IMG/VR virus record: IMGVR_UViG_3300027747_004780
Span: 1-23,949 of that record
From: a virus
DNA: 23,949 bases
Reading direction: 5' to 3' (one strand)
Shown here: positions 16,910 to 23,949 of the stretch, in pieces
How the letters are laid out: every line of letters starts with the position of its first letter
Position numbering within the stretch: position 1 is the first letter of the stretch
Program-made: the position numbers and the translations under genes
Notes under the pieces: generated by a model
The model's database searches: none
Seen by the model: only the letters and a program-made list of their open reading frames with translations
What the model was told of the DNA's origin: nothing

Positions 16910-17599
16910 TCAGTGTGTGCCGAGTGTCCACCAGTTTGTGCCATCACTTATCATGATGATCTGCGCATTGCTGCTTCCTCGTGCTGCCATGTTGAATCCC
17001 GTGGCAGCCGATACGATGGAACCCTGGTTGTCTAGCGTCCCGCCCGCCGCAAGAATCTTAGTTGACGTTGAGTTGGTGATGTTGTGGACGTAGTAAACAC
17101 GACCTGTATTTCCTACAGCATTTGGAAGGGTCACGTTGTAACCTCCCGAACCTCCGCAAAGAAGTACGCAGTCGGATGTCGTGGCGCTGTATGATCCTGT
17201 CAACGTTGTGACGGCCAAGATGTTTCCGTCGCCCGAACCAGACGGTCCCTGCGGGCCCGTGGGCCCGGTGGGACCCGTAATTGAAGGACCTGTATATCCC
17301 GTCGGCCCTGTTGCACCTGTCGGTCCCTGTGGACCTGTGTAACCAGTGGGTCCCTGTGGACCAGTGTAACCTGTCGGTCCCTGTGGACCAGTGTAACCAG
17401 TGGGACCTGTAGGTCCAGTATCGCCCGTCGGACCCGTGGGGCCTGTTGCACCTAATGAACCGCTTCCGAGAGAAGCAGGAGAATAGATGGATATTGACCC
17501 TCCTGAAGAAGAGAAAATCTGTACGGAGCCAGAAGCGACGAGATAGGACTCGCCACTTGACAGTTGGGTGAGAGACCCAGATAACGAACCGTGTCTCAT
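16910..17599 (-). CDS. Short collagen-like fibre protein
   Basis: A 229-aa protein in three parts. Residues 4-41 ([20 protein letters not shown]...) are one copy of the 37-residue repeat found three times in the neighbouring fibre gene. Residues 50-121 are collagen-like Gly-X-Y triplets rich in GPT, GDT, GYT and GPQ. The C-terminus (about 125-229) is beta-rich and resembles phage fibre tips ([32 protein letters not shown]). Collagen-like repeats in phage fibres form triple helices and probably make a stiff rod. It is the last gene of the fibre cluster. AAAGG about 11 bases upstream is a moderate ribosome site. Confidence 0.85.
17237..17452 (-). repeat. Collagen-like coding repeat, 27-base period
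   Basis: Inside the 16910-17599 gene, the sequence repeats with a 9-base triplet period and a 27-base higher period; the block containing CCTGTGGACCAGTGTAAC occurs several times. Encodes GPQGPTGYT-type units. Confidence 0.8.
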
Positions 17600-17641
17600 C
17601 TTTCGTCATACCTTTCAAGAATGTGCATGGTTTTTCTCACC

Positions 17642-19042
17642 TCAGACAATTATCCATCGCTCCGGAGATGCCTCTATCTTTATGACTGTCAGAGAGGAAT
17701 AGTTAACTGATGGCAACTTTACAGCCGAAGAGCCGTCGATATTTCCCACAGAAGACGACAATTCTTGGGGCCCTACAGATCCTGCATTACCTGTCATGTC
17801 TTTGAACACGATGTTTGTGCCTACGGCGGCACTGTGGGGGAGCACGCCTGTCACGTCGTTGACCATGAACACGACTACCTGATCACTTGCACTTACGTTG
17901 TAAGTCGGAGACGTGTTCACGTTGGTTACAGACAAGAGACTTGACTGAGACGGTGCGTACACCGTGACAGCCCCATTCGACGCTGAAGTTATCTGCACCG
18001 CGCCGGATGCAATGAGGTACGAGGTGCCATTCGAAAGGTGAGTGAGAGAACCGCTGATTCCGCCTGTTACCGTAAGCGATCCTGTCATCTCGAACGCGTC
18101 GCCCGAGATGACCGCAGACGACCCTGTCACTTGAAGATTTGCAACAGACAGGGTGCCTGACGTGTAGGTCAGTCCAGCGTCTCCTGTGAATACTCCAGAA
18201 GAGTTGAACTGCACCTGACCGGTGGAACCGCCGGGCGCGCCTCCGTCCGACGACACGAGAACCTGTCCCGTCGAAGAAGTGATGATCGTGATGTTGGACC
18301 CTGCGACGAGGTAGGACTTTCCGTCAGTCAGTCTCGTGAGAGAGCCGCTGATTCCGCCCGTCGCAGAGACCGTACCTGTCACTTCAAGAGAGTCGCCCAA
18401 GACTTCGAATCCGGTCGCGACAAAGGATCCGCTTACGACGACGTCGCCGCCGAACAGCGACTTACCTTCGTTTGTCGACGAAGAGCCGCTGACGTAGAAG
18501 AAGACGTCGGTTCCCTTGTTCTGGGGAGACGTTATTCCCTCGTTTCCTACCATTGCCAGAGATCCTGTGGAATTCAGGATGCCTGCTGAGGGCGATGCGA
18601 AGTAAGCCAGAGAAGGTTGCGCAGAGATTGTCACCTGGCCGTTGGAGGCCGAGGTCACCGTGACTGAGTTCCCTGCGACGATGTACGAACTCCCGTCCGT
18701 GAGACGTGTGAGAGAGCCGCTGATGCCGCCCGTCGCAGAGATCGTACCTGTCATCTCTAAGGAGTCGCACAAGATGTCTACTGAGGCGGAGACGACAAGC
18801 ATGTCCCCCGAATTGTCGCCGATGTATGTGTCTCCGTCAACGAACAACGTTCCCGAGACCACGGTCGTCCCACCAAACACGGATCTCTCCGTGGTCGAAC
18901 CGGACACGAAGAAGGTGACGTCGGTCCCCGGCATCGGCGGGAACTCATCGCCTGGCTCGTTGGCAAAGATCACGCTTCCTGTGATGCCGATTCGACTTGA
19001 TCCCTCAGAGGAACCAGATATGTTGTTCGTTACTAGGGCCAT
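17642..19042 (-). CDS. Tail fibre protein with 37-residue repeats
   Basis: A 466-aa Ser/Thr/Gly/Val-rich protein without Cys except one (residue 92), a typical fibre composition. Three copies of a repeat beginning GGISGSLTxLxxGxSYLxA and ending in strand pairs such as TSASNGQVTIS are at residues 105-141, 229-265 and 327-363. A second repeat, GTDVxFFVSGS...FGG..VVSG, occurs at 39-64 and 177-205. The C-terminal 90 residues (YNVSASDQVV..., ..IVFKDMTGNAG, ERWIIV) resemble the beta-rich end domain common in phage fibres. Probably a structural subunit of an appendage used for receptor binding. Confidence 0.82.
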   Translation of the reverse strand: MALVTNNISGSSEGSSRIGITGSVIFANEPGDEFPPMPGTDVTFFVSGSTTERSVFGGTTVVSGTLFVDGDTYIGDNSGDMLVVSASVDILCDSLEMTGTISATGGISGSLTRLTDGSSYIVAGNSVTVTSASNGQVTISAQPSLAYFASPSAGILNSTGSLAMVGNEGITSPQNKGTDVFFYVSGSSSTNEGKSLFGGDVVVSGSFVATGFEVLGDSLEVTGTVSATGGISGSLTRLTDGKSYLVAGSNITIITSSTGQVLVSSDGGAPGGSTGQVQFNSSGVFTGDAGLTYTSGTLSVANLQVTGSSAVISGDAFEMTGSLTVTGGISGSLTHLSNGTSYLIASGAVQITSASNGAVTVYAPSQSSLLSVTNVNTSPTYNVSASDQVVVFMVNDVTGVLPHSAAVGTNIVFKDMTGNAGSVGPQELSSSVGNIDGSSAVKLPSVNYSSLTVIKIEASPERWIIV

Positions 19043-19101
19043 GGACTTTTCTGTTTCGCTCCCCTATGTCGCCATAAGTATCTTCTCTCAGACTTTCTTC
19101 A

Positions 19102-22468: not shown

Positions 22469-22492
22469 GGGGCTGAATATACAACCTGTGAG

Positions 22493-22528
22493 AAAAAAGT
22501 AATCGAGGCGGGATGAACCGCCTCGATT
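22493..22528 (-). terminator. Rho-independent terminator of the collagen-like gene
   Basis: AATCGAGGCGG (22501-22511) and CCGCCTCGATT (22518-22528) form a perfect 11-bp stem with a 6-base loop. On the minus strand it is followed by a run of T (AAAAAA at 22493-22498), so it ends the collagen-like gene and separates it from the glycosyltransferase gene. Confidence 0.92.
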
Positions 22529-22549
22529 CCATTCGGACTCAGGTCTGTG

Positions 22550-23949
22550 TCACTCAGGCTTCGTGATAGGCACAAGCGCGAACTTGTACCAGTTGCCCGT
22601 GTTGTTGTTCCTGATCGTGAGCTCCTCCGGCTCCTCGACGATCGTCCAGCTTCCACGGTCGTTGCGGAGGTGCAAGTCGCCGGTGTACACGTTGGCCCAA
22701 CGCTTCGTGGGGGCGCCGAGGTTGTACGTGATGTCGTCGCCCGGCTCCATGGACCCAGTGAGAACGAGCAAGTTGCTTCCGCTTACGAAAGTGAACAAGC
22801 TTTCTGCGATGGCACCCGTCGCCGTGCCGTCAGAGGTGAGCACCCTTGTGAAACCGGGGCTTGCAACGGCATTGAAACCCGGACCAGTGTCACCAGTGGG
22901 TCCTTGAGGACCTGTGTCACCAGTCGGACCCATCGGACCCGTATCGCCGGTTGGTCCTTGTGGGCCAGTATCTCCTGTTGGTCCAAGCGGTCCTGTGTCG
23001 CCCGTGGGTCCAAGCGGTCCTGTGTCGCCCGTGGGTCCGAGCGGGCCAGTGTCACCTGTGGGGCCCATTGGTCCGGTATCGCCTGTTGGTCCGAGCGGGC
23101 CAGTGTCTCCTGTTGGACCAAGAGGACCTGTGTCACCAGTTGGTCCTTGTGGTCCAGTATCACCAGTTGGTCCTTGTGGTCCAGTATCACCAGTTGGTCC
23201 TTGTGGTCCAGTATCACCAGTTGGTCCTTGTGGTCCAGTATCACCAGTTGGTCCTTGTGGTCCAGTATCTCCAGTTGGTCCGTGTGGGCCGGTATCTCCG
23301 GTTGGTCCGAGCGGGCCAGTGTCACCTGTGGGGCCCATTGGTCCGGTATCTCCGGTTGGTCCAAGCGGGCCAGTGTCTCCTGTTGGACCAAGAGGACCAG
23401 TGTCACCAGTGGGTCCCGTCGGTCCGGTATCACCCGTAGGGCCTAATGGACCAGTGTCGCCAGTTGGACCTAAGGGGCCTGTGTCACCAGTTGGTCCGAG
23501 TGGCCCGGTATCTCCAGTAGGACCTTGCGGACCAGTGTCTCCTGTTGGGCCCATGGGACCAGTGTCACCAGTGGGACCCTGTGGTCCGGTATCGCCTGTG
23601 GGACCGAGCGGACCAGTATCACCAGTTGGTCCTTGTGGTCCAGTATCTCCTGTTGGTCCAAGCGGTCCTGTGTCGCCCGTGGGTCCTTGTGGTCCAGTGT
23701 CACCTGTGGGGCCTATTGGTCCGGTATCACCGGTTGGTCCAAGTGGGCCAGTGTCACCTGTTGGACCAAGAGGACCAGTGTCACCAGTTGGCCCTTGGGG
23801 TCCGGTGTCACCAGTGGGTCCCGTCGGTCCGGTGTCACCAGTGGGTCCCGTCGGTCCGGTGTCACCAGTGGGCCCTTGGGGTCCGGTGTCTCCAGTGGGT
23901 CCCATTGGGCCCGTGTCTCCGGTCGGACCCATCGGTCCGGTGTCACCAG
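22550..23949 (-). CDS. Long collagen-like fibre protein (5' end outside window)
   Basis: Partial: the frame stays open to the right edge, so the true start lies beyond 23949. Within the window about 351 residues consist of 39 nine-residue units GPxGPTGDT (x = Q, L, M, T, I or H). The C-terminal 109 residues form a separate tip with [19 protein letters not shown] and [12 protein letters not shown], a block I recognise from fibre ends of marine phages. Each unit carries two Thr in the Y position of Gly-X-Y triplets, similar to the Thr-rich repeat of the Bacillus exosporium protein BclA, whose Thr are glycosylated. Probably a long triple-helical fibre. Followed by a terminator. Confidence 0.88.
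22880..23949 (-). repeat. 27-base tandem repeat array
   Basis: About 39.6 copies of a 27-base unit encoding GPxGPTGDT, continuing past the window edge. Copies differ mostly at third codon positions, except five identical copies in a row at 23133-23267, pointing to recent slippage or unequal recombination. Confidence 0.95.

What the first reader, a model, noticed from the sequence alone, without database searches (positions are those of the whole stretch)
16910..23949. Candidate phage-encoded collagen-like fibre glycosylation module
Two collagen-like fibre genes, a repeat-containing fibre gene and two large glycosyltransferase fusion genes are collinear on the minus strand. The collagen repeats hold Thr at two of three Y positions in each nine-residue unit (about 78 in the window). 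Known: the Thr-rich GPT/GDT repeats of BclA are O-glycosylated, and galactosylated Y-position Thr stabilises the triple helix in a deep-sea worm collagen. Inference: the phage makes and glycosylates its own fibre rod.
Basis: partly seen in the sequence, partly recalled or inferred. Interest (0 to 1): 0.8.

Follow-up and report, generated by a model that had tools for sequence, protein, structure and literature searches.

The report
Phage kit for sugar-coating collagen fibres
This virus of bacteria seems to carry its own enzymes for attaching sugars to its collagen-like tail fibres, and the same pairing of enzyme and collagen recurs in many other viruses and bacteria, which would mean that sugar-hardened collagen is common outside animals.

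Summary
Five genes lie collinear on the minus strand: a 5'-truncated collagen fibre, GT2-GT2-TPR, methyltransferase-GT2-TPR, a repeat-containing gene and a small collagen fibre. In the large collagen, Thr fills two of three Y positions without exception (40/40, 39/39) while synonymous sites are scrambled.

The reading also holds, by comparative evidence. Of the best 80 IMG/VR loci of the GT2-TPR family, 50 carry a collagen tract, and 32 of the 34 with at least 6 kb upstream. Random viral loci give 1 of 120; an unrelated phage GT gives 11 of 70. In a sample of viral collagens drawn without regard to the enzyme, strong family matches occur only where Thr fills at least 0.40 of Y: 13 of 47 against 0 of 67. 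Homologues flank collagens in bacterial genomes. The best solved structural matches are peptide glycosyltransferases. C. difficile SgtA, of the same layout, puts GlcNAc on GPT-collagen Thr.

Most likely: initiator, extender and methyl cap building an O-glycan on the fibre rod. No sugar has been measured. New variant of a known kind.

The parts
22550..23947 (-). Collagen-like fibre gene (465 aa in window, 5' end off the record): 39 full units GDT-GPx-GPT plus a C-terminal fibre domain
   Evidence: Translation; Pfam Collagen 1.6e-53; PHROG tail fibre families; Y-position and codon analysis
22886..23947 (-). The Gly-X-Y tract itself (118 triplets in the window, 82 Thr at Y): proposed glycan acceptor
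20792..22468 (-). GT2(N)-GT2-TPR gene, 558 aa: proposed extender plus initiator
   Evidence: model mean pLDDT 84
21857..22468 (-). N-terminal GT2 domain; its 12 viral loci all hold a GT2-TPR-like region fused or close by, and 10 of the 12 records carry Thr-collagen
   Evidence: invariant ND motif in 11 aligned sequences
20795..21856 (-). GT2-TPR domain, copy 1 (59% identical to copy 2)
19102..20772 (-). Methyltransf_24-GT2-TPR fusion gene, 556 aa: proposed initiator with methyl cap
20179..20772 (-). Methyltransf_24 domain (proposed sugar O-methylation)
   Evidence: relatives
19105..20178 (-). GT2-TPR domain, copy 2; AlphaFold model pLDDT 94, nearest PDB SunS/ThuS peptide glycosyltransferases
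17642..19042 (-). Repeat-containing fibre-like gene, 466 aa, no family above cut-off
16910..17599 (-). Small collagen-like fibre gene, 229 aa; tract at 17282-17461 (20 triplets, 15 Thr at Y, GPT/GYT) plus 17240-17275 (4 triplets)

Best explanation
The two large genes encode cytoplasmic polypeptide O-glycosyltransferases dedicated to the phage's own collagen-like fibres. Proposed steps: (1) the GT2-TPR enzyme, its TPR superhelix gripping the unfolded Gly-X-Thr chain, transfers a sugar from a nucleotide-sugar to the hydroxyl of Y-position Thr; (2) the extra N-terminal GT2 of 20792-22468 adds a second sugar; (3) the methyltransferase of 19102-20772 caps the glycan with a methyl group; (4) the decorated chains trimerise into a rod whose Y-position sugars do the stabilising and hydrating job that hydroxyproline does in animals, and coat the fibre. 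Shown here: genes, domains, selection on Thr, family-wide pairing with Thr-rich collagen, and fold kinship to peptide glycosyltransferases. Inferred: acceptor residue, order of steps, sugar identity, methyl on the sugar, and benefit to the virion.
For: Pairing: collagen tract in 50/80 viral GT loci, the nearest on the same strand in 49/50 and upstream in 42/50, and 32/34 when at least 6 kb upstream is held; 23 of 25 clusters at 80% identity. Random viral loci 1/120; unrelated GT4 control 11/70, and for loci of at least 10 kb 11/47 against 36/51, p=3e-6. Bacterial genomes 46/80, 35 within 600 bp. Thr dependence: among 114 viral collagens sampled without regard to the GT, strong family matches (E at most 1.2e-107) in 13/47 with Y-Thr of at least 0.40 and 0/67 below, p=3e-6. 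Non-adjacent link: 9 of 12 named phage records with the GT hold the GxT-GPT-GxT pattern against 1 of 11 control jumbo phages, p=0.003. Fusions: 14 of 79 viral GT ORFs carry N-terminal additions of over 100 aa, 10 of them one methyltransferase family. Window-type MTase relatives: collagen in 7 of the 10 loci that also hold the GT (three sequence groups, each with collagen) and in 0 of 67 without it. Fold: SunS Z 23.0, ThuS 21.7; GmaR GT domain by sequence, E 1.2e-11. Precedent: SgtA on BclA3 (PMC7157674 passages). Thr glycosylation is named as a mechanism of collagen stabilisation in PMC3368898 (passage).
Against: No sugar has been shown on any phage collagen in what I read; two prophage collagens made recombinantly were unglycosylated by periodic acid-Schiff stain (PMC3368898 passages), though their commonest triplets are GPK/GPQ/GPA and the passages name no glycosyltransferase. 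Thr at Y is common in Gram-positive collagens anyway (48.3%, PMC8968730 passages) and can serve hydration without sugar. 34 of 47 Thr-rich sampled collagens lie in records without a strong GT match, 17 of them at least 20 kb. At E of 1e-10 two records with Thr-poor collagen have weak matches (L158, L195). 18 of 44 bacterial loci with long upstream flanks have no tract. Three records with the GT lack the pattern (HRDY3, Lu11, S-SRM01). L003, L004 and L005 show no collagen in 4-9 kb. Donor sugar and methyl acceptor are unknown.
Confidence: 0.78

Rival explanations
1. The glycosyltransferases alter the host envelope (O-antigen, teichoic acid, capsule) to block superinfection, and sit near fibres only because host-recognition genes cluster.
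For: This is one of the usual readings of phage GTs (PMC7029224, PMC10202952 and PMC12619734 passages). TarS/TarP (wall teichoic acid enzymes, recalled) and WrtF are among the structural matches.
Against: The link is to Thr-rich collagen, not to viral collagen in general. An unrelated phage GT gives 11/70. Window-type MTase relatives have collagen only when the GT is present. The same family flanks collagen genes in bacterial genomes. SunS/ThuS outscore the polysaccharide enzymes (Z 21.7-23.0 against 18.7).
Confidence: 0.1
2. The glycosyltransferases glycosylate phage DNA against host nucleases.
For: Proposed for freshwater actinophage GTs (PMC10202952) and stated as a reported role of phage GTs (PMC12619734).
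Against: GT-A-type GT2 with TPR and peptide-GT structural relatives. The Pfam and PHROG scans of window genes (not every ORF was scanned) name no base hydroxymethylase. The link to Thr-collagen is unexplained by this.
Confidence: 0.03
3. The glycosyltransferases do glycosylate the virion, but on another protein or on the non-collagen parts of the fibre; Thr-rich collagen merely travels with the same fibre set.
For: Some GT loci have no detectable collagen (2 of 34 viral with long flanks; 18 of 44 bacterial); glycans on mycobacteriophage capsid and tail tube subunits are reported (PMC12619734 passage).
Against: Thr dependence in the independent sample; Thr at two Y positions of the window collagen is under complete purifying selection; the SgtA acceptor is the collagen repeat itself.
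Confidence: 0.07
4. Thr at Y serves water-bridged stabilisation without sugar, and the pairing reflects shared ancestry of a fibre cassette.
For: Thr is the commonest Y residue in Gram-positive collagens; many Thr-rich collagens lack this GT on their record.
Against: 23 of 25 clusters at 80% identity keep the pair; it recurs at about 26-39% GT identity in unlinked positions; SgtA precedent.
Confidence: 0.02

Closest known systems
Clostridioides difficile SgtA / BclA3
   Same: GT-A domain followed by TPRs (358 aa; the window domain modelled is also 358 aa), gene immediately upstream of a GPT-rich collagen-like protein; SgtA adds beta-O-GlcNAc to Thr of the collagen repeats (PMC7157674, passages)
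   Different: Spore exosporium, single GT; here phage fibres, two GT2-TPR copies with an extra GT2 and a methyltransferase fused. The SgtA sequence was not at hand, so homology to SgtA itself was not tested
Mimivirus L230 collagen lysyl hydroxylase / glucosyltransferase
   Same: A virus enzyme that glycosylates the virus's own collagen in vitro (PMC9614988, passages)
   Different: Acts on hydroxylated Lys and has a lysyl hydroxylase domain; here Thr, and no hydroxylase domain was found
SunS / ThuS peptide S-glycosyltransferases (SunS: SPbeta prophage)
   Same: Best structural matches, Z 23.0 (271 residues) and 21.7 (315 residues)
   Different: Act on small bacteriocin peptides (recalled); TIGR04195 SunS score 19-21 against a cut-off of 350
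Listeria GmaR
   Same: GT domain plus TPR, GlcNAc on flagellin (PMC9638930 passages); DxDE aligned
   Different: Has a further antirepressor part; substrate is flagellin
Bacillus BclA exosporium filament
   Same: Collagen-like filament protein that is glycosylated (PMC8968730 passages); Thr-rich repeats and methylated sugars are recalled
   Different: Spore filament of a bacterium
Mycobacteriophage virion glycosylation
   Same: Glycans on phage structural proteins (capsid and tail tube; PMC12619734 passage; the original paper was not read)
   Different: No collagen link known to me

Membership tests
PHROG 13126 GT2-TPR family ('beta-1,4-glycosyltransferase') | Profile match over the GT2-TPR region | tested here: met
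   E 9.9e-100 and 4.4e-94
PHROG 13126 GT2-TPR family ('beta-1,4-glycosyltransferase') | Catalytic-type motifs (DTGSTD, DxDE, HE) and C-terminal TPRs | tested here: met
   D40 T41 G42 S43 D45, D90 D92 E93, H144 E145 invariant in the 54-sequence alignment; 17 of 42 invariant columns lie beyond residue 170; TPR Pfam matches
SgtA/BclA3-type collagen O-GlcNAc transferase | GT-A followed by TPR, about 350 aa | tested here: met
   Model with ten strands then TPR helices, pLDDT 94; structural matches to GT-A GTs and TPRs; SgtA layout from PMC7157674
SgtA/BclA3-type collagen O-GlcNAc transferase | Gene beside a GPT-rich collagen-like gene | tested here: met
   Window gap 81 bp; family-wide
SgtA/BclA3-type collagen O-GlcNAc transferase | Transfers GlcNAc to Thr of Gly-X-Thr | not testable with these tools
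   Needs an enzyme assay
SgtA/BclA3-type collagen O-GlcNAc transferase | Sequence homology to SgtA itself | not tested
   SgtA sequence was not at hand
SunS peptide S-glycosyltransferase (TIGR04195) | Score above curated cut-off 350 | tested here: not met
   19.4 and 21.1 bits
SunS peptide S-glycosyltransferase (TIGR04195) | Shared fold over GT plus TPR | tested here: met
   Z 23.0, rmsd 3.1, 271 residues
Mimivirus L230-type collagen modifier | Lysyl hydroxylase domain and Lys at Y | tested here: not met
   No such Pfam match in the five genes; Y residues of the large tract T82 L15 Q13 M6 I1 H1, no Lys
T4-type DNA glucosyltransferase | GT-B fold GT acting on DNA (recalled) | tested here: not met
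   GT2 with GT-A-type structural matches and TPR; activity itself not tested
Phage collagen-like tail fibre | Gly-X-Y tract plus tail-fibre profile match | tested here: met
   (the profile matches rest largely on the collagen tract)

The most novel reading that the evidence does not exclude
Phages carry self-contained, capped O-glycan assembly lines (initiating GT2-TPR, extending GT, methyl cap, often fused into one chain) whose substrate is Thr-rich collagen. Sugar on Y-Thr is the phage and bacterial answer to animal hydroxyproline, and the large phage GT family now filed under 'auxiliary metabolic gene and host takeover' is a structural-protein modification system.
Probability: 0.5. Interest if true: 0.85.

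Novelty: new variant of a known kind. Interest (0 to 1): 0.74.

Why it matters
If true, it reassigns a widespread phage glycosyltransferase family (at least 466 IMG/VR relatives in one capped scan) from presumed DNA protection or host-envelope change to modification of the virion's own fibres. It gives a genome-readable rule for which collagen-like fibres are glycosylated, names phages in which it can be measured, and offers a hydroxyproline-free way to make stable collagen rods with a compact enzyme set, of use to biomaterials. It also makes directly testable whether Y-position sugar stabilises bacterial and phage triple helices.

Tried and rejected
Rejected or weakened: (a) host-envelope and DNA-modification readings, on the calls listed under rivals. 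(b) That the methyltransferase alone marks the system: of 77 window-type MTase loci, 67 have no GT2-TPR and none of these has collagen. (c) That any phage GT pairs with collagen: GT4 control 11/70, where 9 of the 11 have at most 10 triplets in all, and one of the 11 (L441) also holds the GT2-TPR. (d) That the link needs adjacency: in seven phage records the nearest pattern match lies 20 kb or more from the GT. (e) Tandem paralogues as a general trait: none of the 80 viral loci has a second GT2-TPR ORF; the window is unusual here.

Led nowhere: tblastn of the repeat gene and of the fibre ends against the loci then held found one weak match; NCBIfam gives no name above its cut-offs; the tail of L003 after the fusion gene is too short to show a neighbour. 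Literature: ten searches showed no paper that links phage collagen fibres with dedicated glycosyltransferases; I saw listings, and passages of eight papers, not whole texts; only 25 of 74 papers were listed; only open-licence PMC papers are held.

Rows dropped or overlapping: 6 of 120 sampled collagen loci had no tract of 7 triplets and left the count. GT matches of E 1.1e-11 to 9.4e-36 (L130, L158, L168, L195) were counted as negative; counting them gives 14/47 against 2/67 (L168 has no tract). Of the 13 positives, two are loci also in the GT set (L173 = L048, L192 = L027) and a third overlaps it in part (L197 with L051). L027 is one of the 57 rows of the search profile. The ten MT24 loci with a GT fall into three groups at over 90% identity, so the Fisher value overstates independence; L418 and L419 give identical matches, as do the N-terminal pieces of L068 and L073. 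In one search, 3 of 80 MT24 loci (L003, L004, L587) and 3 of 37 MT-B loci (L030, L589, L591) were left out as already known or duplicate. In one search, 70 of 71 GT4 loci were used (L005, the query, left out). One of 80 viral GT loci gave no ORF by the rule. The best 80 of 466 viral and of 490 genome relatives were examined, not all. The 11 control jumbo phages were chosen by me from recalled accession numbers, 12 asked and 1 not held; the 12 GT-positive records were picked by me from the lists. That comparison is small and not random.
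Full report
WHAT IS THERE. The window is a whole IMG/VR virus record of 23,949 bases; the collagen gene runs off its end, so it is a fragment of a larger phage. On the minus strand five genes follow each other with gaps of 81, 19, 59 and 42 bp: a collagen-like fibre (22550-23947, cut), a GT2-GT2-TPR gene (20792-22468), a Methyltransf_24-GT2-TPR gene (19102-20772), a repeat-containing gene (17642-19042) and a small collagen-like fibre (16910-17599). The two GT2-TPR parts are 59% identical and match PHROG 13126, named beta-1,4-glycosyltransferase and filed under 'moron, auxiliary metabolic gene and host takeover'.

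SELECTION ON THREONINE. In the large collagen the unit is GDT-GPx-GPT. Thr is present at 40 of 40 GDT and 39 of 39 last-GPT triplets, written with all four Thr codons; third codon positions outside the free codon are only 0.32-0.50 identical between units, and the middle Y is free (L15, Q13, M6, T3, I1, H1). So the two Thr per nine residues are kept by selection on the protein, not by recent DNA duplication. Thr at Y alone does not prove sugar: it is the commonest Y residue of Gram-positive collagens (PMC8968730, passages).

PAIRING WITH COLLAGEN IN RELATIVES. A Gly-X-Y tract of 7 or more triplets is in 50 of 80; the nearest lies on the GT's strand in 49 of 50 and upstream in 42 of 50; of the 34 loci that hold at least 6 kb upstream, 32 have one. 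Two of the 30 negatives carry Thr-collagen elsewhere on the record. With redundancy removed at 80% identity, 23 of 25 clusters with long upstream flank keep it (5 of 6 at 70%). Controls: 1 of 120 random viral loci (1,078 kb, against 1,024 kb for the GT loci); 11 of 70 loci of an unrelated phage GT4, 9 of them with 10 triplets or fewer, p=3e-6 for loci of at least 10 kb. In bacterial genomes, mostly uncultured Bacilli and Clostridia, 46 of 80 loci have a tract, 35 of them within 600 bp, 40 of 46 on the same strand; of the collagen ORFs counted there 48 lie within 1 kb, 10 at 1-3 kb and 5 beyond. 18 of 44 bacterial loci with long upstream flank have none. The closest relatives of the methyltransferase-GT fusion, L003 and L004 (89% identical), are fragments of 4.3 and 5.2 kb in which it follows a DNA ligase gene and no collagen is seen.

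DEPENDENCE ON THREONINE. I sampled viral collagens by a DNA pattern that fixes Gly and Pro but leaves Y open. Of 120 loci, 114 hold a tract; Y-Thr ranges from 0 to 1. Searching their whole records with the 57-sequence GT profile gave strong matches (E at most 1.2e-107) in 13, all with Y-Thr of at least 0.43: 13 of 47 at 0.40 or above, 0 of 67 below (p=3e-6); for records of at least 20 kb, 7 of 24 against 0 of 39 (p=6e-4). Counting weak matches (E to 1e-10) gives 14 of 47 against 2 of 67. Two of the 13 are loci also found by the GT scan and a third overlaps one. Many Thr-rich collagens (34 of 47) lack a strong match on their record; fragments, other enzymes or no glycosylation are all possible.

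NON-ADJACENT LINK. More distant members of the family (about 26-39% identity) often sit next to DNA ligase and head-protease genes in large phages (SNUABM_22 is unannotated there; S-SRM01 differs). In seven of these records the nearest GxT-GPT-GxT stretch lies 20 kb or more from the GT by record coordinates. In all, 9 of 12 named phage records with the GT contain such a stretch, against 1 of 11 jumbo phages without a convincing match (p=0.003). The exceptions are HRDY3, Lu11 and S-SRM01 (partial GT match) on one side and P-SSM2 (GT match only E 8.7e-6) on the other. The reversed control pattern gave none. Both lists were chosen by me.

EXTRA DOMAINS. 14 of 79 viral GT ORFs carry N-terminal additions of over 100 aa: 10 share one methyltransferase family, one of these with a further DXD glycosyltransferase domain; 3 share another domain without Pfam match (GT-like by eye); one has the DXD domain alone. 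The window's methyltransferase belongs to another Pfam family. Among 77 viral loci of that family, 10 also hold a GT2-TPR gene, adjacent in 8; collagen is in 7 of these 10 and in 0 of the other 67. The ten fall into three sequence groups, each with collagen in at least one locus. The methyltransferase found fused in L015 and its like is fused to a GT2-TPR in 30 of 34 loci. The window's N-terminal GT2 has 12 viral loci, all with a GT2-TPR-like region fused or within a few kb (60% identical to the window's in L409, 22-33% in the rest), once as GT2-TPR-methyltransferase-GT2 in a 955-aa chain (L420), and 10 of their 12 records hold Thr-collagen, often with GYT triplets. These fusions are what one expects of initiator, extender and capping steps of one glycan.

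FOLD. The GT2-TPR model has pLDDT 94. Best solved matches are SunS (Z 23.0, rmsd 3.1, 271 residues) and ThuS (Z 21.7, 315 residues), peptide glycosyltransferases, ahead of WrtF (18.7). By sequence the GT domain finds GmaR, which puts GlcNAc on flagellin, with the DxDE motif aligned (E 1.2e-11). 17 of 42 invariant columns lie beyond residue 170, in the TPR half, which fits substrate recognition there. The model of the whole 20792-22468 product is good for the C-terminal part and fair to poor for the N-terminal GT.

MECHANISM AND PRECEDENT. SgtA of C. difficile has the same layout (GT-A 1-260, TPR 262-358), lies immediately upstream of bclA3, and adds beta-O-GlcNAc to Thr of GPT collagen peptides in vitro (PMC7157674, passages). 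Mimivirus L230 shows that a virus enzyme can glycosylate viral collagen, on Lys (PMC9614988, passages). Two prophage collagens of E. coli, rich in GPK/GPQ, were found unglycosylated when made recombinantly (PMC3368898, passages). I therefore infer Thr O-glycosylation of the fibre rods, then extension and methylation, for triple-helix stability, hydration and cover. Sugar, order and benefit are not shown.

NOVELTY. Collagen-like phage fibres, virion glycosylation and bacterial collagen O-glycosylation are each known; a phage system with its own fused extender and methyl cap was not found in ten literature searches of open PMC papers, of which I saw listings and passages of eight papers. Phage authors read such GTs as DNA protection or host-surface change (PMC7029224, PMC10202952, PMC12619734, passages). 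I file it as a new variant of a known kind.

Noticed in passing
window 5357-5430 and 5706-5794: tRNA-Asn (GTT) and tRNA-Ser (GGA) genes on the plus strand.
   Followed up: no
window 1-528, 1103-2137, 7747-8637, 9527-10582: Peptide deformylase, AAA ATPase, lysozyme-type endolysin with peptidoglycan-binding domain (minus strand) and a sigma-70 factor.
   Followed up: partly
window 15440-16780: Protein with an HEYYH metallopeptidase-like motif and a DQSGS VWA-like motif (read by eye); PHROG labels its family 'HNH endonuclease', which looks doubtful.
   Followed up: no
L008, L421, L423, L424, L425, L426, L428, L429, L003, L004, L409: The GT2-TPR gene keeps company with a DNA ligase gene both in large phages and in the window's nearest relatives, although the ligases differ in kind (annotated NAD-dependent in HRDY3 and fHe-Yen9-02, ATP-dependent by PHROG in the window).
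   Followed up: partly
L006 10436-12007 (phage DSL-LC01): A tryptophan-halogenase-like flavoprotein (Pfam E 5.5e-50) lies between the collagen genes and the GT; it could be a further fibre-modifying enzyme.
   Followed up: no
L071 8801-11083; L420 7694-10561: Single chains of methyltransferase + DXD GT + GT2-TPR and of GT2-TPR + methyltransferase + GT2.
   Followed up: partly
L410, L412, L413, L415, L417: Collagens of phages with the window's N-terminal GT2 are rich in GYT triplets, also seen in window 16910-17599.
   Followed up: no
L418 and L419, 8285-10627: The GT gene seems split in two by a small inserted ORF (8902-9390), perhaps a homing endonuclease by eye.
   Followed up: no
L209-L288: Uncultured Bacilli and Clostridia carry the same GT beside Thr-rich collagen genes, a large untested set of SgtA/BclA3-like pairs.
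   Followed up: partly
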